Below are positions 173 through 11,291 of a stretch of 27,147 bases of DNA, one piece after another. A program made the position numbers and the translations under genes. The notes under the pieces were generated by a model. That model was not told the DNA's origin and did no database searches. It saw only the letters and a program-made list of their open reading frames with translations. The first letter of the stretch is position 1; each line of letters opens with the position of its first letter. Origin of the DNA: a virus; IMG/VR virus record IMGVR_UViG_3300017769_002310, positions 1-27,147 of that record, one strand, 5' to 3'.

Positions 173-184
173 ATGAGTGGGCCC

Positions 185-250
185 GGGGTGAAAGTTGGAC
201 TTTCCCATAGTGAGGGGGTATGTGTATATAGGGGGGCAACACTACACCCC
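185..250 (+). ncRNA. Candidate structured RNA or cis-regulatory element in the leader
   Basis: A hairpin with stem GAAAGT/ACTTTC (190-195 with 199-204) and a three-base loop sits just inside a possible long-range pairing of GGGGTG (185-190) with CACCCC (245-250); the two share base 190. An alternative pairs the G run at 233-236 with CCCC at 247-250. The strong local departure from the AT-rich background suggests constraint on structure or on a protein-binding site. I recognise no RNA family, and expression is unknown. Confidence 0.3.
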
Positions 251-1332: not shown

Positions 1333-2898
1333 ATGGAATACAATTTACCTAGCGAGATCGTCAAAGACTTAAACTTTGGCGATCAAGCTAAAACTAGAAT
1401 AATAGCTGGTGTTGATAAGCTAGCTGAAGCAGTAAAATCAACTTTAGGAGCCTCAGGTAAGTGCGTAATATACGAAGACGCAAGAGGTAAACCGGTGATT
1501 ACAAAAGACGGTGTAACCGTTGCGCAAAGCGTAGTCTTATATGACCCGGTTGAAAACATAGGGGCAACATTAATTAAAGAAGCTGCACAAAACACTGTAA
1601 AAGAGGCTGGTGATGGAACTACTACAGCCACTGTTTTAGCTCAGTCTTTGTTAAAACAGGCCACAAAGTCGCAAAAAGACGGTGTTTCTACAAGAGATAT
1701 TAAAAATGGCGTTAATTCTTGCCTTGAAAAAGTTAATAACTACTTAGACACAGTCAAACTAGACGTAAAAAACGACATGTTAAGCAATGTATCTGCAATT
1801 TCTTGTAATAACGACAAGTTTTTAGGCAAAATTATAGCCGAAGCCTACGAAAAGGTTGGAGAAAACGGTGTTGTACTGATGGAAAGCTCTGAAACAGAAG
1901 AAACACACGTTAAAATCGTAGATGGAGTACAATTAAACAATGGTTTAACATCGCCGTATTTCATAACTAACAAGGAAAAGCAAGTTTGTGAGCTAGACAA
2001 TCCACTTGTGCTTATATGCATGTCAGAAATACCTAATGTTAGAAAAATTCAAACACTTTTAGAGTTTGCTATAAAGAAAAACAGACCTATATTAATAGTT
2101 TCTCAGGTATCTCAACAAGTTAGAGCCGCGTTACTGATGAACAAAGCAAAAGGTAATATTAAAATAAACATTATTGACTTACCAGGCTTTGGTCCTACTA
2201 AAAGAGACACTTGTGAAGACTTGGCTATACTAACTGGAGCAACTATTATAGACGAGGTGTTAGGTGATGACTTAGATCTTGTTAACGTTAATTGTTTAGG
2301 TGAAGCTAAATACACTGTAACAGATAACGATACTACTGTTATAACAACTTCAGAAGAAATAGAGCAAAATTTAGAAGAAAGAATAGATCAAGTATCAAAA
2401 CTTTTTTTAAACGAAAAGAACGGTTATATAAAGAAAAGATTAGAGCAAAGATTATCGATGTTATCTGGTAGTGTTGGTATTGTTAAGGTTGGTGCAAACT
2501 CTAAGGTAGAATTAAAAGAAAAGAAAGATAGAGTGGAAGATGCAATATATGCTACTAAAGCAGCACTAAAAGAAGGTATAGTACCTGGCGGTGGAGTTGC
2601 ACTATTAAACGCTTCCCAGAAAATTACAGCTGTAAACAAGGGTGAGCAAATATTATTAGACGCAATAAAATCACCGTACAACACTATACTAGATAATGCT
2701 GGAATAAAAGAAATAATTTCTTTACACGAAGGTAATGGTATTGACGTTGTAACTGGAAAAGAAGTTGATATGATAGACTCTGGTATTATAGATCCAGTAC
2801 TTGTAACAAAGTCAGCACTTAAAAACGCGGTAAGTGTTGTTTCAACAATTATATCTGCTGACTGCGTAATTTCTAATATAAGGGTTGATGAGAAGTAA
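1333..2898 (+). CDS. groEL: GroEL-type group I chaperonin (phage-encoded)
   Basis: ATP-driven folding chamber, 521 residues against about 548 in E. coli GroEL. The ATP site is intact: GDGTTTA at 93-99 (D94 matches E. coli D87), the hydrolysis aspartate D403 in DRVED (E. coli D398), the glycine triplet in VPGGG (419-421), and D487 in IIDP (E. coli D495). The apical region around 220-305 aligns by eye, including PGFG at 284-287 and the following DLAILTG. The C-terminus stops at VDEK and lacks the GGM-repeat tail that lines the bacterial cavity floor. The oxygenase gene starts inside its last codons and a GroES-like gene follows, so the three are probably translated together. Divergence from cellular GroEL plus phage synteny argue for a resident viral gene. 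Likely clients are the capsid or giant tail protein (inference). Confidence 0.95.
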   Translation: MEYNLPSEIVKDLNFGDQAKTRIIAGVDKLAEAVKSTLGASGKCVIYEDARGKPVITKDGVTVAQSVVLYDPVENIGATLIKEAAQNTVKEAGDGTTTATVLAQSLLKQATKSQKDGVSTRDIKNGVNSCLEKVNNYLDTVKLDVKNDMLSNVSAISCNNDKFLGKIIAEAYEKVGENGVVLMESSETEETHVKIVDGVQLNNGLTSPYFITNKEKQVCELDNPLVLICMSEIPNVRKIQTLLEFAIKKNRPILIVSQVSQQVRAALLMNKAKGNIKINIIDLPGFGPTKRDTCEDLAILTGATIIDEVLGDDLDLVNVNCLGEAKYTVTDNDTTVITTSEEIEQNLEERIDQVSKLFLNEKNGYIKKRLEQRLSMLSGSVGIVKVGANSKVELKEKKDRVEDAIYATKAALKEGIVPGGGVALLNASQKITAVNKGEQILLDAIKSPYNTILDNAGIKEIISLHEGNGIDVVTGKEVDMIDSGIIDPVLVTKSALKNAVSVVSTIISADCVISNIRVDEK

Positions 2899-3319
2899 AT
2901 ATCTAAATTTTTTATCTGAACAAGATATATCACATCTTTACGAAACTTTACTTCTAAACGAAAAGTATTACGTGTTAAAAACTAAAAACAAAATAGTTGA
3001 TAAGATTATAAATAAATTAGCTATTGACTTTGATTTTAAAATTAAAGCAGAATCGTATTTTAAAATTGAAAAAACTAGTGGTGAAGGTCACGATTGGCAC
3101 GTAGACACAGGGTCTAGTAATCATATGGCTTGGTGTGAGGTTGGTTGTACAGTATTGTTAAAAGGAGATTACAGTGGTGGTGAAACTTATTACAAAGAAA
3201 AAGACAAGGTTGTAGAGGTTGAAAGATCTATAGGTGATTTATGTGCACACAGCTCTGACGTAGAACACAAAGTAAACCCTACAATCGGCGATAGACAAGT
3301 ATTTTTAATTTTTATTTAA
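2888..3319 (+). CDS. 2-oxoglutarate/Fe(II)-dependent oxygenase
   Basis: A small (about 143 residues) double-stranded beta-helix oxygenase of the prolyl-4-hydroxylase-like type. Counting from the TTG at 2885, the iron ligands are H72 and D74 in DWHVD and H128 in VEHKV. R137, nine residues later in GDRQ, would bind the 2-oxoglutarate carboxylate. This HxD...H...R order and spacing is the family signature. I place the start at ATG 2888 rather than the TTG just before it. The ORF overlaps the groEL end by 11 bases and stops 6 bases before groES, so it is embedded in the chaperonin operon. The substrate could be a protein side chain, a nucleobase or a small molecule; the sequence does not say. Confidence 0.85.
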   Translation: MRSKYLNFLSEQDISHLYETLLLNEKYYVLKTKNKIVDKIINKLAIDFDFKIKAESYFKIEKTSGEGHDWHVDTGSSNHMAWCEVGCTVLLKGDYSGGETYYKEKDKVVEVERSIGDLCAHSSDVEHKVNPTIGDRQVFLIFI

Positions 3320-3325
3320 TTTAAT

Positions 3326-3583
3326 ATGAAAGCATTAAACAGGTTTCTTATAATAGAGAAACACAAGGTAGAACCTAAAAAAGTTGGAGGTCTTATAATG
3401 ACCGAAAAAATAGATGAGGACAATAGGTATATAAAGGGCACGGTAGTGTCTGTTGGTAATTTAGTAGATTATATAAGTGAAAAAGATATAATATACTACG
3501 ATAAGCATGCTGGTCACGGTTTAAGCTTAAATGACACGCTATACCATGTGATTAGAGATATAGACGTTGTTATTGTTGAATGA
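3326..3583 (+). CDS. groES: GroES-like co-chaperonin (Cpn10 fold)
   Basis: An 85-residue protein matching the GroES pattern: an N-terminal strand LNRFLIIEK, then the mobile-loop motif VEPKKVGGLIMTE (15-27), where L23-I24-M25 takes the place of the Ile-Val-Leu tripeptide that docks on GroEL. The strand KGTVVSVGN (37-45) corresponds to RGEVLAVGN in E. coli. It ends in DVVIVE, like the bacterial C-terminus. The segment after GNLVDYI is short, so the roof hairpin seems reduced. It caps the GroEL chamber, presumably the chaperonin encoded two genes upstream. Its stop overlaps the next start (ATGA), indicating translational coupling. Other phages use dedicated co-chaperonins such as T4 gp31; here the partner is encoded as well. 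Confidence 0.85.
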   Translation: MKALNRFLIIEKHKVEPKKVGGLIMTEKIDEDNRYIKGTVVSVGNLVDYISEKDIIYYDKHAGHGLSLNDTLYHVIRDIDVVIVE

Positions 3584-5717: not shown

Positions 5718-5913
5718 TGTAGGTAAAGATTATAAAACTGATGCCATGCATTATGCTGTTGGTCAAGAAGTTTATGGTGGTCACACTATTTGTGATATAA
5801 TTGAAGAAAAAGATAAATTCTCAATTTATATTAAAAAAAATAGAGCTGTAATACCATGGAAAGACTTTAATAAAAATATGGCAATATCTGTTGAGTATAA
5901 TCTAGAGTATTAA
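5695..5913 (+). CDS. Small conserved-looking hypothetical protein
   Basis: A 72-residue protein of unknown function. It reads as a compact beta-rich domain: IIRKISVG, the segment HYAVGQEVYGGHTICDIIEE (12 onward after a short turn), then SIYIKK and VIPWKDFN. It overlaps the preceding coiled-coil gene by 23 bases and its stop overlaps the next start by one base (TAATG), so it is translated as part of the chain leading to terminase. The fold could be SH3-like, judged only from strand alternation and glycines. The well-ordered composition makes it a real gene despite its size. Confidence 0.65.
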   Translation: MQIIRKISVGKDYKTDAMHYAVGQEVYGGHTICDIIEEKDKFSIYIKKNRAVIPWKDFNKNMAISVEYNLEY

Positions 5914-6503
5914 TGAAAAGTCCTTTTTATTTTATAATAGAACCTAAGGGTGAAAGGTATAATAATGCTAAAAAAGTTGGCGATAAAGAATTAATACTAA
6001 ATACTGAAATATCAAATTACGAGTTTATAAATAGGCAGGGTATAGTTAAGTCTATACCCTTAGCCTATAAAACAGATATACAAGTCGGTGACGAGCTAAT
6101 AGTTAATCACAATGTTTTTCGTAGATGGAATGATGTTAAAGGTAGAGAAAAAAATAGTAGAAGTTTTATAGATGAAAAAACTTATTTAGTACAACCAGAT
6201 CAAGTATACGCATACAAACGCTCTTTAGATTGGAAACCTGTTGAGGGCTTTTGTTTTGTAAAACCTTTAAAAAACGACTGGAAGTATAGCTTAAACCCTG
6301 AAAAACCACTGGCTGGTATGATTAAGTACAGCAGTAATTATCTTAAAGAAGGCGATATAGTAGGCTTTACACCAAATGATGAATATGAGTTTGTCATTAA
6401 TAACGAGAGGTTGTATAGGATAATGAATAAATATATTACAATTAAATATGAACACGAAGGAAACAAAGAAACTTATAATACAAGCTGGGCACAGGGCAGT
6501 TGA
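5913..6503 (+). CDS. Tandem GroES-like (double Cpn10-type) protein
   Basis: A 196-residue protein that seems to hold two GroES-like folds. The first half (4-103) starts with FYFIIEPKG, has a loop and strand like a mobile-loop region (KVGDKELILNTE), then RQGIVKSIPLA, VGDELIVNHN (58-67) and a closing VYAYKR. The second half (107-180) repeats the order: VEGFCFVKP, LAGMIKYSSN, EGDIVGFTP (146-154) and LYRIMNKYITIKYE. The V/E-G-D-x-hydrophobic element of GroES appears in each half. A docking tripeptide is not obvious, so it may bind GroEL differently or only share the fold. It lies two genes before terminase, after a TAATG coupling. The assignment is by eye and needs a profile search. Confidence 0.55.
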   Translation: MKSPFYFIIEPKGERYNNAKKVGDKELILNTEISNYEFINRQGIVKSIPLAYKTDIQVGDELIVNHNVFRRWNDVKGREKNSRSFIDEKTYLVQPDQVYAYKRSLDWKPVEGFCFVKPLKNDWKYSLNPEKPLAGMIKYSSNYLKEGDIVGFTPNDEYEFVINNERLYRIMNKYITIKYEHEGNKETYNTSWAQGS

Positions 6504-6726
6504 AGAGTTAATAAACGTTGCTAAAGAAAAAATTATAACAAACACCGAAGATGATGTATCTGCCGATAGATTAAAAAACGCTGCAGCAACAAAAAAGTTA
6601 GCTATATTTGATGCGTTTGAAATACTTAACAGAATACAAGAAGAGGAGAATTTGATAGAAGGTAAAATTCCACAAGAAAAAAAGCAAAAAGTATTTAAGG
6701 GTTTTGCTGAAGGAAGATCAAAATGA
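6448..6726 (+). CDS. Candidate small terminase subunit (TerS)
   Basis: A 92-residue, helix-rich protein lying immediately before the large terminase gene (4-base ATGA overlap). Helices are likely at 3-30 and about 38-68 (SADRLKNAAATKKLAIFDAF), ending in a basic FKGFAEGRSK. TerS proteins are small, helical, DNA-binding and encoded just upstream of TerL, so position and build fit, but no helix-turn-helix is clear. The start at 6448 lies 56 bases inside the previous gene; no other in-frame ATG would keep the N-terminal helix, so this long overlap seems real. An alternative is a non-TerS assembly factor. Confidence 0.55.
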   Translation: MNTKETKKLIIQAGHRAVEELINVAKEKIITNTEDDVSADRLKNAAATKKLAIFDAFEILNRIQEEENLIEGKIPQEKKQKVFKGFAEGRSK

Positions 6727-8939
6727 AGTACGAGCAATCACTAATTAAAATAATAGAACCTATTAAACGTACGACTATAACTCGTATGAATAAGGGTAAA
6801 AAATGGAAATATGGATACAGTAAAGAACATGATATTATCGTTATATCAAAAAATGGTACAATTGGTGAAATACTTGAAATACAAAATTTGCGAGTTGCGT
6901 TGCCAAAAAAACCGGTGCAACTGCAGTCTAGCAAAGTAAAAAAGTGGGAAAGACTAGATTATCCAAAAGAACTAAGTAGACTTAAAAATATATTTGACTG
7001 GAGGTCACACCCAGAAAACCAAAAAGAACAATGGTTCGACTATATAGACCAAGAGTTTAAAAATAGAGAAGAAGGGTTTTGGTTTGACAATAGCGGTACG
7101 CCAACATACATAACTGGTAGCCACTACATGTACTTACAGTGGAGTAAAATAGATGTAGGTGCACCAGATTTTAGAGAGGCTAATAGAATATTTTTTATAT
7201 TCTGGGAAGCATGTAAAGCAGATAAACGATGTTACGGTATGTGCTATCTTAAAAACAGACGATCTGGTTTTTCTTTTATGTCATCAGCTGAAACAGTTAA
7301 TTTAGCTACAATATCAAGTGATAGTAGATATGGTATATTATCTAAAAGTGGATCAGACGCTAAAAAAATGTTTACTGACAAAGTTGTACCAATATCAGTT
7401 AATTACCCTTTCTTTTTTAAACCGATTCAAGATGGTATGGATCGACCTAAAACAGAATTAGCATATAGAGTTCCAGCTAGCAAGTTTACAAGAAAAAAAA
7501 TAACTGCTAACGAAAAATTAGAGGAGTTAAAAGGCTTAGACACAACTATAGACTGGAAAAACACTGGAGACAATAGTTATGACGGTGAAAAGCTAGCTTT
7601 ACTAGTACACGATGAAAGTGGTAAATGGGAAAGACCTGATAACATATTAAATAACTGGCGAGTAACAAAAACATGTTTAAGGTTAGGTAGTAGAATTATA
7701 GGTAAGTGTATGATGGGGTCAACATCAAACGCGCTAGACAAAGGAGGTAATAACTTTAAAAAACTATACAATGATTCAGACGTTACTCAAAGAAACAGGA
7801 ATGGACAAACAAAGTCTGGCTTGTATTCTCTCTTTATCCCAATGGAATGGAACTACGAAGGATTTATTGATGAATACGGACATCCAGTATTTAATAATCC
7901 AGATAATGATGTATACGGACCAGACGGAGAGTTAATTGATTATGGTATTATTGATCACTGGAACAACGAGGCCGACGGCTTAAAAAATGATCAAGACGCT
8001 TTAAACGAATTTTATAGACAATTTCCAAGAACTACTGAACATGCTTTTAGAGATGAGGCAAAAAACAGTATATTTAATCTAGTAAAAATATACGAGCAAA
8101 TAGATTACAACGAAGAAATGAACAGGTCTATTGGTTATAGTAAGGGAAACTTCCAATGGGTGAATGGTATTAAAGATACTCAAGTAATATTCTATCCAGA
8201 TCCAAAAGGTAGATTTAACGTAACGTGGACACCTGGTGTTGAACTACAAAACAAAGTTTTAGTTAAAAACGGTGTTAGATACCCTGGTAACGAACATATG
8301 GGTGCTTTTGGCTGTGATAGTTATGATATATCAGGAACTGTAGATGGTAAAGGCTCTAAAGGAGCTTTACACGGCTTAACTAAGTTTAGTATGGAAAACG
8401 CACCAGCTAACCAGTTTTTTTTAGAGTATATAGCTAGACCACAAACAGCTGATATATTTTTTGAAGACGTTTTGATGGCTCTAGTGTTTTATGGGATGCC
8501 GTTATTATGTGAAAATAACAAACCACGTTTATTGTATTATTTAAGAAGAAGAGGTTATAGGGGTTACAGTATGAATAGACCAGATAAATCATGGAATAAA
8601 CTTTCTGTAACTGAAAAAGAAATAGGTGGTATACCAAACTCAAGCGAAGATATAAAGCAAGCACACGCTGCTGCAATTGAAATGTATATACAAAGCCATG
8701 TTGGAAAAGTAAACGAAGATACTTATGGTAACATGTATTTCAACAGAACTTTAAACGATTGGAGTGGGTTTGATATAAATAAACGAACAAAATACGATGC
8801 CACTATAAGTAGTGGTTTGGCGGTTATGGCTTGTAACAGACATCTGTACAAACCAAACCCAAATCTTGAAAAACAAAAATTAAACATTAATATATCACGT
8901 TACAGCAATGATGGTTTCGTGTCAAAAATAATAAAATAA
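6723..8939 (+). CDS. terL: Terminase large subunit (packaging ATPase and nuclease)
   Basis: A 738-residue motor that pumps and cuts phage DNA at the portal. In the ATPase, the P-loop position reads NRRSGFS (178-184), a non-canonical Walker A without the usual GKT/S. Walker B is LLVHDES with D297 and catalytic E298. A coupling-type motif lies at GSTSN (332-336), and FPRTTEHAF (434-442) matches the conserved linker before the nuclease. The RNase H-like nuclease has candidate metal ligands D532 and D535 (CDSYD), E597 (LCENN) and D692 (YDATISSG). The protein is somewhat longer than typical TerL because of an N-terminal extension of about 120 residues. The portal gene follows by 6 bases. The Walker A form resembles that of Bacteroidota phage terminases as I remember them. 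Confidence 0.88.
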   Translation: MKYEQSLIKIIEPIKRTTITRMNKGKKWKYGYSKEHDIIVISKNGTIGEILEIQNLRVALPKKPVQLQSSKVKKWERLDYPKELSRLKNIFDWRSHPENQKEQWFDYIDQEFKNREEGFWFDNSGTPTYITGSHYMYLQWSKIDVGAPDFREANRIFFIFWEACKADKRCYGMCYLKNRRSGFSFMSSAETVNLATISSDSRYGILSKSGSDAKKMFTDKVVPISVNYPFFFKPIQDGMDRPKTELAYRVPASKFTRKKITANEKLEELKGLDTTIDWKNTGDNSYDGEKLALLVHDESGKWERPDNILNNWRVTKTCLRLGSRIIGKCMMGSTSNALDKGGNNFKKLYNDSDVTQRNRNGQTKSGLYSLFIPMEWNYEGFIDEYGHPVFNNPDNDVYGPDGELIDYGIIDHWNNEADGLKNDQDALNEFYRQFPRTTEHAFRDEAKNSIFNLVKIYEQIDYNEEMNRSIGYSKGNFQWVNGIKDTQVIFYPDPKGRFNVTWTPGVELQNKVLVKNGVRYPGNEHMGAFGCDSYDISGTVDGKGSKGALHGLTKFSMENAPANQFFLEYIARPQTADIFFEDVLMALVFYGMPLLCENNKPRLLYYLRRRGYRGYSMNRPDKSWNKLSVTEKEIGGIPNSSEDIKQAHAAAIEMYIQSHVGKVNEDTYGNMYFNRTLNDWSGFDINKRTKYDATISSGLAVMACNRHLYKPNPNLEKQKLNINISRYSNDGFVSKIIK

Positions 8940-8945
8940 GAATAT

Positions 8946-11291
8946 ATGGCTGAGTCAGTACATGTTAACTTTCCTTCTCAAGTTGTAAGCGACTTGGAAA
9001 AAATGAGCTATGATTATGGTTTAAAAATAGCTAGGGCTATTGAGCAAGAGTGGTTCAATGGTACACATTCCAATAAATACTATGACGCTCAATCAAAGTT
9101 CCACAAACTAAGACTATATGCACGTGGAGAACAATCAATACAAAAATATAAAGATGAGTTATCTATTAATGGTGATTTGTCTTATCTTAATTTAGACCGG
9201 AAGCCAATACCTATTATACCTAAGTTTGTAGATATAGTTGTTAATGGTATGTCCGAAAGAATGTTTAGCGTAAAGGCTTATTCGCAAGATCAGTATGGTG
9301 TTAGTAAAAGAACTGAGTATATGGAAAAGATGCTTAGAGATATGCAAACTAAAGTTTTTAACGACCAAGCAGCTGCTGGTATGAGTATGAACCTTTATGA
9401 AACAGATCCTGACGTGTTACCAGAAACAGAAGAGGAGTTAGCGTTACACATGCAGTTAACATATAAACAAAATGTAGAAATAGCCGAGGAGCAAGCGATA
9501 AATAGCTTATTAGATGGTAGCAACTACGATTTAACAAGAAGAAGATTATTGTATGACCTAACAGTACTAGGTATTGGTTGTGTAAAAACAAACTTTAATT
9601 TTAGCGAAGGTGTTACTGTTGAGTATGTTGATCCAGCTAACTTAATATACTCATATACTGACTCTCCTTATTTTGAAGATATATATTATGTTGGTGAAGT
9701 TAAAACAATACCAATACCAGAGCTTGTTAGACAGTTTCCTAATCTAACGCAATCTGACTTAGAGGGTATAAACAAAAGCGCTAAAAGACCTAGTGGTAGA
9801 TATACTTTTAGAGAAACTTCTGACAAAAACAAAGTACAAATACTATATTTTAATTACAAAACATATAGTCATGACACTTACAAAGTAAAAGAAACAGGTA
9901 CTGGCGCTGAAAAAGCTATTGAAAAACAAGACACATTTGACCCACCGTCAAACAATGAAGGTAGTTACTATAGATTACAAAGAGCTGTTGAGTGTGTATA
10001 TGAAGGTGCTTTGATATTAGGTACTGACAAGTTATTAGCTTGGAATAAGTGTGAAAACATGATACGTGATAAGAGTGATTTTAACAGAGTTAAAATGAAC
10101 TATAGTATTGTAGCACCAAGAATGTATAACGGTCAAATAGAAAGCACTGTAAGCAGAATTACTGGCTTTGCCGATATGATACAACTAACTCATTTAAAAC
10201 TTCAACAGGTGATGTCTAAAATGGTTCCTGATGGAGTTTACTTAGATGCTGATGGTTTAGCTGAAATAGACTTAGGTAATGGTACAAATTATAATCCACA
10301 AGAAGCTTTAAACATGTTCTTCCAAACAGGTTCTGTTATTGGTAGATCAATGACTTCTGAAGGAGACCCTAACGCTGGTAAAGTTCCAATACAACAAATA
10401 GCAAATGGCTCTAACAATGGTAAGTTACAAAGTTTAATACAAACTTACAACTACTACCTGCAGATGATTAGAGATACAACCGGTCTTAATGAAGCTAGAG
10501 ATGGTAGTGTGCCTGATGCAAGAGCTTTGGTTGGTGTTCAAAAACTAGCTGCAGCCAACTCTAACGTTGCAACAAGACATATATTAGACTCATCGATGTT
10601 TATCACAGCTGAAATAGCAGAAAAGTTATCTTTAAGAATATCTGATATACTAGAATACTCACCAACAAAAGATGCTTTTATACAAGCTGTAGGTGCACAC
10701 AACGTAGCAACATTAAAAGAAATGTCTGAGTTACACTTATATGACTTTGGTATATTCTTAGAATTAGAGCCTGATGAAGAGCAAAAACAATTACTTGAAA
10801 ATAACATACAAACAGCTTTAGCTCAAAAATTAATTGATTTAGATGATGCTATAGACGTTAGAGAGGTCAGAAGTGTTAGATTAGCAAATCAATTGTTAAA
10901 GTTAAAAAGAAAAAAGAAAGCTGAAAAAGATCAGCAAATGCAACAACAAAATATTCAAGCACAAGCAAAGGCTAATGCAGATCAACAACAAGCAGCGGCA
11001 CAAACGGAAATGCAAAAGAACCAAGCAAAAACAGCTTCAGAGATACAGGTAGAAACTGCACAAGCTAAGTTTAAAATGCAGTATTTACAAGAGGAAGTAA
11101 GGTTGAAAAAAGAGTTGATGCAATATGAGTTTGAATTAAACACTCAGTTGAAAGAAAAAGAAAACAAAAGTAAAGAAAATATTGAGACCATGAAACAAAC
11201 TGGTAAAGAGACTAAAAAGTTTGAATCTTCAGGTAATGATATACTAGGGGGTGGACTAGGTCTTGATAAATTTAACCCAAAGATTAATTAA
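8946..11291 (+). CDS. Portal protein
   Basis: A 781-residue protein, the size of podovirus-type (P22/T7-like) portals, lying directly after TerL and before scaffold and capsid. It has a helical N-terminus, a mixed core and a conserved-looking segment TGLNEARDGS with PDARALVG (about 510-530) seen in portals near the tunnel region. After about residue 655 it becomes a long Gln/Lys/Glu-rich helix (QQMQQQNIQAQAKAN, AAQTEMQKNQ), presumably the C-terminal barrel or coiled-coil crown that projects into the capsid. Twelve copies should form the DNA channel, the terminase dock and the base for neck proteins. It ends in a glycine-rich GGGLGLDKFN. Confidence 0.85.
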   Translation: MAESVHVNFPSQVVSDLEKMSYDYGLKIARAIEQEWFNGTHSNKYYDAQSKFHKLRLYARGEQSIQKYKDELSINGDLSYLNLDRKPIPIIPKFVDIVVNGMSERMFSVKAYSQDQYGVSKRTEYMEKMLRDMQTKVFNDQAAAGMSMNLYETDPDVLPETEEELALHMQLTYKQNVEIAEEQAINSLLDGSNYDLTRRRLLYDLTVLGIGCVKTNFNFSEGVTVEYVDPANLIYSYTDSPYFEDIYYVGEVKTIPIPELVRQFPNLTQSDLEGINKSAKRPSGRYTFRETSDKNKVQILYFNYKTYSHDTYKVKETGTGAEKAIEKQDTFDPPSNNEGSYYRLQRAVECVYEGALILGTDKLLAWNKCENMIRDKSDFNRVKMNYSIVAPRMYNGQIESTVSRITGFADMIQLTHLKLQQVMSKMVPDGVYLDADGLAEIDLGNGTNYNPQEALNMFFQTGSVIGRSMTSEGDPNAGKVPIQQIANGSNNGKLQSLIQTYNYYLQMIRDTTGLNEARDGSVPDARALVGVQKLAAANSNVATRHILDSSMFITAEIAEKLSLRISDILEYSPTKDAFIQAVGAHNVATLKEMSELHLYDFGIFLELEPDEEQKQLLENNIQTALAQKLIDLDDAIDVREVRSVRLANQLLKLKRKKKAEKDQQMQQQNIQAQAKANADQQQAAAQTEMQKNQAKTASEIQVETAQAKFKMQYLQEEVRLKKELMQYEFELNTQLKEKENKSKENIETMKQTGKETKKFESSGNDILGGGLGLDKFNPKIN

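What the first reader, a model, noticed from the sequence alone, without database searches (positions are those of the whole stretch)
1333..3583. A phage carries both GroEL and GroES, so the folding machine is self-contained
Most phages with chaperonin genes carry only a co-chaperonin (T4 gp31) or only a GroEL. Here a GroEL with intact ATP-site residues and a GroES with a recognisable mobile loop sit in one operon ahead of the head and tail genes. The lack of the GGM tail and the shortened roof segment suggest an altered chamber.
Basis: partly seen in the sequence, partly recalled or inferred. Interest (0 to 1): 0.7.

Follow-up and report, generated by a model that had tools for sequence, protein, structure and literature searches.

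The report
Phage with own GroEL, two co-chaperonins

Summary
GroEL (1333-2898) and GroES (3326-3583) are real, on one strand and under purifying selection. Of 53 related viral contigs found through GroEL, 52 carry groES directly behind it (the other is cut off). The tree rejects recent host capture. The claim of rarity does not hold: isolates of four related lineages (Cellulophaga phi38:1/Calle, Flavobacterium elemo, Maribacter Panino, ctfjg026) carry both genes, and the Panino paper says so.

(1) A 196-aa protein beside the terminase (5913-6503) is a tandem double GroES-fold protein. Its best solved match is plastid Cpn20, and it occurs with this GroEL throughout the group. (2) Baltivirus relatives have the tandem protein and a small GroES but no GroEL, so the lids do not strictly need a phage GroEL. 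(3) GroEL's lid- and substrate-binding groove is changed (Y199L, L234Q, V264M) and the inter-ring loop is shortened.

Best reading: a phage-dedicated group I chaperonin with its own lids, folding virion proteins late in infection. No function was tested.

The parts
1333..2898 (+). groEL: group I chaperonin, 521 aa; ATP site intact, no GGM tail, inter-ring loop about 6 residues shorter than in cellular GroEL
2885..3319 (+). 2OG-Fe(II)-oxygenase-like ORF (144 aa; ATG at 2888) lying between groEL and groES; H-x-D...H motif visible; in this sub-lineage only (window, L002-L005, L012, L013, L018)
   Evidence: phrog_61 E 9.8e-8; distribution; dN/dS 0.10-0.15
3326..3583 (+). groES: single-domain co-chaperonin (85 aa) with mobile loop GGLIMT (residues 21-26) and shortened roof segment
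5913..6503 (+). tandem GroES-fold protein (196 aa), second putative co-chaperonin: N-domain about 1-105 with hydrophobic tripeptide LIL (27-29), C-domain about 106-180 without a clear mobile loop; conserved C-terminal YNxSWA tail
   Evidence: phrog_13932 'co-chaperonin GroES' E 5.2e-18; model and fold matches to Cpn20/GroES; homologues over the Cpn10 cut-off
6723..8939 (+). terminase large subunit, neighbour and anchor gene for the tandem co-chaperonin
   Evidence: phrog_6681 E 2e-168
8946..11291 (+). portal protein, start of the virion module (candidate clients)
   Evidence: phrog_6547 E 5e-140

Best explanation
The locus encodes a phage-dedicated group I chaperonin system: a GroEL ring, a roofless single-domain GroES lid, and a second co-chaperonin-like protein built of two GroES folds (plastid-Cpn20-like architecture) placed beside the packaging genes. 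Most likely the phage GroEL binds and hydrolyses ATP, captures phage structural proteins made late in infection on an apical groove that differs from the host's, and closes with the phage's own lid(s); the late region (terminase, portal, capsid, a 2,536-aa structural protein) supplies likely clients. Shown by sequence: the three genes, intact ATP site, mobile loops, purifying selection, long viral ancestry, joint conservation. Inferred: that GroEL and the phage lids form a working complex, that the lids prefer phage over host GroEL, and that clients are virion proteins. Open: whether rings are single or double, and what the tandem protein does (lid, mixed-lid subunit or assembly factor).
For: Family assignments over curated cut-offs. 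ATP site kept in 52 of 52 viral relatives, and more conserved than matched random positions (agreement with cellular consensus 0.88 against 0.58). GroES with mobile loop, modelled as Cpn10. groEL followed by groES in 52 of 53 contigs, the exception being a truncated contig. dN/dS 0.02-0.22. GroEL and tandem protein go together: all 24 viral records tested of the terminase-related group have both (the two others tested, immuto and DAC16, are different phages). In the reverse search, seeded only with the tandem protein, 17 of 19 loci with at least 6 kb upstream carry groEL and groES there and one more record has GroEL elsewhere. The tandem model's best match is Cpn20 (Foldseek E 3.6e-5; VIA Z 9.8 over 153 residues) and its C-domain matches GroES at Z 9-10, rmsd about 2. 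Tandem homologues from phi38:1 and phi18:3 pass the Cpn10 cut-off (28.2 and 32.6 bits against 21.1). Apical substitutions Y199L (47/52), L234Q (52/52) and V264M (52/52), where cellular GroELs keep Y in 79/79, L in 64/79 and V in 72/79, suggest a dedicated partner or client surface.
Against: No expression, folding or interaction data. The apical and inter-ring differences are only marginally beyond matched random positions (fractions as low 0.058 and 0.065), so retuning and ring-state claims are weak. Baltivirus relatives keep both co-chaperonins without GroEL, so the lids may serve host GroEL. The window's own tandem protein does not itself reach the Cpn10 Pfam model, and profile-profile comparison with the GroES family is weak (probability 30%).
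Confidence: 0.6

Rival explanations
1. The co-chaperonins are T4-gp31-like lids for the host's GroEL, and the phage GroEL is an addition working largely by itself (aggregation prevention as in phage EL, without encapsulation).
For: Baltivirus phi18:3, phi13:2 and phi19:3 carry a small GroES and a tandem GroES but no GroEL. Phage EL chaperonin does not interact with E. coli GroES and prevents aggregation without encapsulation (PMC7185714).
Against: In the window's group groES always follows groEL closely (52 of 53). The GroEL is a clear group I protein with an intact ATP site, about 37% identical to E. coli GroEL, unlike EL with 22%.
Confidence: 0.2
2. The tandem protein at 5913-6503 is not a co-chaperonin but a virion or packaging-assembly factor that happens to use the GroES fold. 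(This concerns the tandem protein only and can hold alongside the main explanation for GroEL and GroES.)
For: It is always close upstream of the terminase gene; its C-domain lacks a clear mobile loop; GroES-like folds occur elsewhere (alcohol dehydrogenases at Z up to about 6 for the N-domain); it has a conserved C-terminal tail of unknown role.
Against: Homologues score over the Cpn10 cut-off. The best whole-length match is Cpn20. An N-domain hydrophobic tripeptide at L27-I28-L29 is kept in all relatives. It co-occurs with groEL/groES. In phi18:3 its gene is annotated from similarity only, while the portal is marked as found by virion proteomics.
Confidence: 0.25
3. Recent capture of a host groESL operon, or a misassembled contig.
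For: Metagenomic contig; other phages (DAC16, an uncultured 735-kb record, Vibrio Va1) have GroELs nested among cellular ones.
Against: The GroEL sits in a 19-member viral clade outside all cellular sequences. GroES also separates from the cellular rows, weakly (SH-aLRT 77). The same arrangement is in dozens of contigs and several isolates. The gene order is groEL then groES, the reverse of the E. coli groES-groEL operon.
Confidence: 0.02
4. A degenerate, non-functional chaperonin kept as a passenger.
For: Universal P33A and altered apical residues.
Against: dN/dS 0.02-0.06 and catalytic residues kept.
Confidence: 0.03

Closest known systems
Cellulophaga phage phi38:1 / Calle_1 (Pervagoviridae) chaperonin genes
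   Same: GroEL, a Cpn10 gene two genes away, and a tandem GroES-fold gene directly before the terminase
   Different: groES lies before groEL with a small ORF between; proteins only about 38-39% (GroEL) and 30% (tandem) identical
Flavobacterium elemo phages (Elemovirus)
   Same: GroEL followed directly by GroES, and a tandem 'co-chaperonin GroES' directly before the terminase
   Different: GroEL 36% identical; the chaperonin pair is on the opposite strand to the structural module; the tandem protein lacks the YNPSWA tail
Maribacter phage Panino (PMC11590407)
   Same: GroEL, a small GroES annotated as hypothetical (CDS0109) and the tandem protein annotated as GroES; the paper reports GroEL and GroES homologues
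   Different: GroEL 39% identical, tandem 33%
Marine flavophage 'group 2' genomes of Nishimura et al. 2017 (PMC5332604)
   Same: 36 genomes with GroEL related to the Cellulophaga phage homologues; probably the window's own group
   Different: GroES is not mentioned in that paper's main text (0 occurrences), nor therefore a tandem co-chaperonin
Baltivirus phi18:3, phi13:2, phi19:3 (Cellulophaga phages)
   Same: Related terminase, a small GroES and a tandem GroES protein before the terminase
   Different: No GroEL; the tandem's C-domain keeps a mobile-loop-like segment (KKPSLIYIPEDNKEK)
Plastid Cpn10/Cpn20 co-chaperonins (PMC4242682, PMC5780408)
   Same: A single-domain co-chaperonin without roof loop plus a head-to-tail double-domain one; there they form mixed lids
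   Different: No close sequence kinship shown; the window's C-domain lacks a clear mobile loop; oligomeric state unknown
Phage chaperonins EL and OBP; T4 gp31
   Same: Phage-encoded chaperonin or co-chaperonin; gp31 also matches the GroES model by fold
   Different: EL and OBP are chaperonins described as working without a co-chaperonin (PMC5934643; PMC7185714); gp31 is a lid used with host GroEL

Membership tests
Group I chaperonin (GroEL/Cpn60) | Full-length Cpn60 homology, closer to group I than group II | tested here: met
   PF00118 198 bits; full-length solved group I chaperonins about 300-392 bits against 99.5 for an ancestral group II chaperonin
Group I chaperonin (GroEL/Cpn60) | ATP-site residues D52, GDGTT (86-90 region), D398, GGG (414-416), D495 | tested here: met
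   All present; invariant in 52 viral relatives except G415 (46 G, 6 A)
Group I chaperonin (GroEL/Cpn60) | Works with a separate Cpn10 lid | tested here: inconclusive
   groES encoded just downstream; the interaction cannot be tested here
Group I chaperonin (GroEL/Cpn60) | Staggered double heptameric ring | not testable with these tools
   Segment 447-480 is 27-31 residues in viral against 32-35 in cellular sequences; A109, R452, E461 not kept, but not beyond matched random positions at 5%
GroES/Cpn10 (ORF 3326-3583) | Cpn10 family score over curated cut-off | tested here: met
   PF00166 31.0 bits, cut-off 21.1
GroES/Cpn10 (ORF 3326-3583) | Mobile loop with hydrophobic tripeptide | tested here: met
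   GGLIMT; GGLILT-like in relatives; lower pLDDT in residues 11-30
GroES/Cpn10 (ORF 3326-3583) | Roof hairpin (typical, not defining: plastid Cpn10s also lack it, PMC4242682) | tested here: not met
   11 against 20 residues; paper passage
GroES/Cpn10 (ORF 3326-3583) | Heptameric ring | not testable with these tools
   no structure or assembly data
Cpn20-type tandem co-chaperonin (ORF 5913-6503) | Two GroES folds head to tail | tested here: met
   Model pLDDT 76; 7ekq_R (Cpn20) Foldseek E 3.6e-5, VIA Z 9.8, 153 residues, rmsd 4.2; C-domain to GroES Z 9-10. The N-domain alone is less certain
Cpn20-type tandem co-chaperonin (ORF 5913-6503) | Cpn10 sequence family score | tested here: inconclusive
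   The window protein itself has no PF00166 hit; homologues of phi38:1 (28.2 bits) and phi18:3 (32.6 bits) do, linked to its family profile by E 1.7e-34 and 4.9e-10
Cpn20-type tandem co-chaperonin (ORF 5913-6503) | Mobile loop in both domains | tested here: not met
   LIL tripeptide in the N-domain only; so it is not filed as a Cpn20, only as Cpn20-like in architecture

The most novel reading that the evidence does not exclude
The roofless single-domain GroES and the tandem protein assemble together into a mixed seven-domain lid (for example three tandem plus one single) on the phage GroEL, a plastid-like Cpn10/Cpn20 arrangement that arose in phages, with the position next to the terminase tying lid production to head assembly.
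Probability: 0.15. Interest if true: 0.7.

Novelty: new variant of a known kind. Interest (0 to 1): 0.42.

Why it matters
Phages with GroEL and GroES are known from sequence, but I found no study of how their lids and rings pair. This group offers a natural series: a relative with none of these genes found (Gundel_1), relatives with two co-chaperonins only (Baltivirus), and relatives with GroEL plus two co-chaperonins (elemo, phi38:1, Panino and the window's clade). Isolates exist, so one can ask directly why a phage adds its own ring, whether lid and ring co-evolved away from the host's, and whether mixed Cpn10/Cpn20 lids arose outside plastids. It also shows that the 'co-chaperonin GroES' annotations beside these terminases are double-domain proteins.

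Tried and rejected
Recent host capture or misassembly: rejected by the tree and by many contigs and isolates. Degenerate gene: rejected by dN/dS. GroES tree: 97 columns, too few to resolve (viral/cellular split SH-aLRT 77). Single-ring prediction from inter-ring residues: loop lengths do not overlap between viral and cellular sequences, but residue loss is not clearly beyond matched positions (0.065), so it is not claimed. tblastn of the window GroES against phage records found nothing; profiles did better. A Bacteroidota-type promoter pattern occurs once in the window, no more than chance. No Rfam family in the window. GroEL's own structure was not predicted: the two jobs went to the co-chaperonins. 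Marine et al. 2017, the main survey of viral chaperonins, is not held in the library, so its statement is taken second-hand from PMC7185714; it may already describe GroES in this group.

Full report
OBSERVATION. The window is a 27,147-base virus record. ORF 1333-2898 (521 aa) is a full-length group I chaperonin: PF00118 E 2.7e-58, phrog_5725 'chaperonin groEL' E 6.9e-134. ORF 3326-3583 (85 aa) is a co-chaperonin: PF00166 E 2.7e-7, phrog_3188 E 5e-12. Both are on the + strand, ahead of holin, terminase, portal and virion structural genes.

Against E. coli GroEL (locus L059) and 79 cellular GroELs, the ATP-site residues T30, G32, D52, D87-T91, N153, D398, G414-G416 and D495 are all kept in the window and invariant in 52 viral relatives, except G415 (A in six); P33, which is P in 79 of 79 cellular sequences, is A in all 52. 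As a set these positions agree with the cellular consensus far more than matched random positions (0.88 against 0.58). The GGM tail is absent (the protein ends SNIRVDEK). The GroES keeps a mobile-loop motif (GGLIMT against GGIVLT) and its roof segment is 11 residues against 20. Its AF2 model (pLDDT 88.8) matches Cpn10 structures and drops in confidence only around the mobile loop.

IS IT REAL AND OLD? A protein-seeded scan of IMG/VR gave 53 contigs. In 52 of them groES lies behind groEL, usually overlapping its end; the last contig ends inside groEL. The oxygenase separates them only in the window's sub-lineage (window, L002-L005, L012, L013, L018). dN/dS is 0.02-0.06 (groEL), 0.04-0.22 (groES) and 0.10-0.15 (oxygenase). 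In a 77-row maximum-likelihood tree the window and 18 IMG/VR GroELs form one clade (98/94), outside all cellular sequences including 16 Bacteroidota. Other flavophage GroELs (elemo, phi38:1/Calle, Panino, ctfjg026) also fall outside the cellular sequences but on long branches, so whether all these phages share one origin is not settled. The best cellular matches found are about 41% identical.

IS IT RARE? No. Bracher et al. 2020 (PMC7185714), citing Marine et al. 2017, write that many phages encode only GroES, some both, and few only a GroEL-like chaperonin. Cellulophaga phi38:1 (gp005 groEL, gp007 Cpn10), Calle_1, Flavobacterium elemoC (gp45 groEL, gp46 groES), ctfjg026, the myophage immuto and Maribacter Panino (stated in PMC11590407) have both. 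Nishimura et al. 2017 (PMC5332604) reported GroEL in 36 marine flavophage genomes, probably this very group.

ORF 5913-6503 (196 aa), upstream of the terminase, matches phrog_13932 'co-chaperonin GroES' over most of its length (E 5.2e-18). Its model (25-sequence alignment, pLDDT 76) has two beta-rich domains. The best solved match is 7ekq_R, the Cpn20 co-chaperonin subunit (named), over nearly the whole length (Foldseek E 3.6e-5; VIA Z 9.8, 153 residues, rmsd 4.2), and the C-domain matches single GroES chains at Z 9-10, rmsd about 2. The N-domain is less certain: on its own it resembles mainly the GroES-like domains of alcohol dehydrogenases and their kin, at Z of about 5-6. The window protein itself does not reach the Cpn10 Pfam model, but its homologues in phi38:1 (28.2 bits) and phi18:3 (32.6 bits) do (cut-off 21.1), and profile matches tie them to the window's family (E 1.7e-34 and 4.9e-10). 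A hydrophobic tripeptide (L27-I28-L29) sits where the N-domain's mobile loop should be and is kept as L plus two aliphatic residues in all 25 rows; no such segment is evident in the C-domain. I therefore call it a tandem GroES-fold protein with Cpn20-like architecture, not a Cpn20.

CO-OCCURRENCE. Of 26 phage records tested, all with GroEL, the 24 from the terminase-related group also have the tandem protein; immuto and DAC16, different phages, do not. That set was chosen largely through GroEL, so I repeated the search seeded only with the tandem protein: of 19 loci with at least 6 kb upstream, 17 have groEL and groES there, and one more record has GroEL elsewhere. Among isolates with a related terminase, Baltivirus phi18:3, phi13:2 and phi19:3 have a small GroES and a tandem protein but no GroEL, and in Tenacibaculum Gundel_1 none of the three was found. 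So the co-chaperonins are more widespread in this group than the GroEL, which weakens the claim that they exist only for the phage's own ring.

ALTERED CHAMBER. The groove of GroEL that binds substrate and lid (positions known from E. coli mutational work; my knowledge) is changed: Y199 to L in 47 of 52, L234 to Q in 52 of 52, V264 to M in 52 of 52, L259 often to K or R. The equatorial segment 447-480, which carries inter-ring contacts (my knowledge), is 27-31 residues in viral against 32-35 in cellular sequences. A control with conservation-matched random positions puts the loss at the apical and inter-ring sets at fractions 0.058 and 0.065, so I treat retuning as plausible and ring state as open.

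MECHANISM. Shown: genes, intact catalytic residues, mobile loops, selection, joint inheritance. Inferred: a phage-dedicated folding chamber used during late gene expression for virion proteins, closed by the phage's GroES; the tandem protein may be a second lid, part of a mixed lid, or an assembly factor. In plastids, roofless Cpn10s and double-domain Cpn20 form mixed functional lids, and one Arabidopsis Cpn10 works only with Cpn20 (PMC4242682; PMC5780408). The phage set resembles that and makes a direct prediction for native MS. Confidence is 0.6 for the general reading and 0.15 for the mixed lid.

VERDICT. The tandem co-chaperonin beside the terminase, together with the groove changes and the Baltivirus comparison, makes it an uncharacterised variant worth testing.

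Noticed in passing
window 2885-3319 (+): A 2OG-Fe(II)-oxygenase-like ORF lies between groEL and groES only in the window's sub-lineage; most relatives have groEL and groES overlapping directly. Its substrate is unknown.
   Followed up: partly
window 5913-6503 (+), C-terminus: The tandem GroES-fold protein ends in a conserved YNPSWA-type tail across the IMG/VR clade (YNTSWA in the window and its closest relatives); elemo and ctfjg026 homologues lack it.
   Followed up: no
L037 10275-12314: An ORF joins a fibre-like N-terminus with FSGDG motifs to a GroEL from GDGTTTATVLAQ onward, including a PPMM end; probably a chimeric assembly at a shared motif, in a contig that also has the phage GroEL.
   Followed up: partly
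window 175-250: A G/C-rich patch (gggcccgggg ... gagggggta ... ggggggcaacactacacccc) in an otherwise AT-rich stretch upstream of the first + strand genes; no Rfam match.
   Followed up: no
L058 8767-9033 (Maribacter phage Panino CDS0109): A small GroES annotated as hypothetical protein just after groEL; the gene annotated as GroES in Panino is the tandem protein.
   Followed up: yes
L062 (Vibrio phage Va1): A GroEL gene sits between the tail sheath and tail tube genes; in the tree it falls among gammaproteobacterial sequences, so of separate origin.
   Followed up: no
L063 (Acinetobacter phage MD-2021a): A record labelled as phage carries a bacterial groESL operon and neighbouring bacterial housekeeping genes; probably mislabelled bacterial DNA. 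Salmonella-named records with GroL also appear in the phage collection.
   Followed up: no
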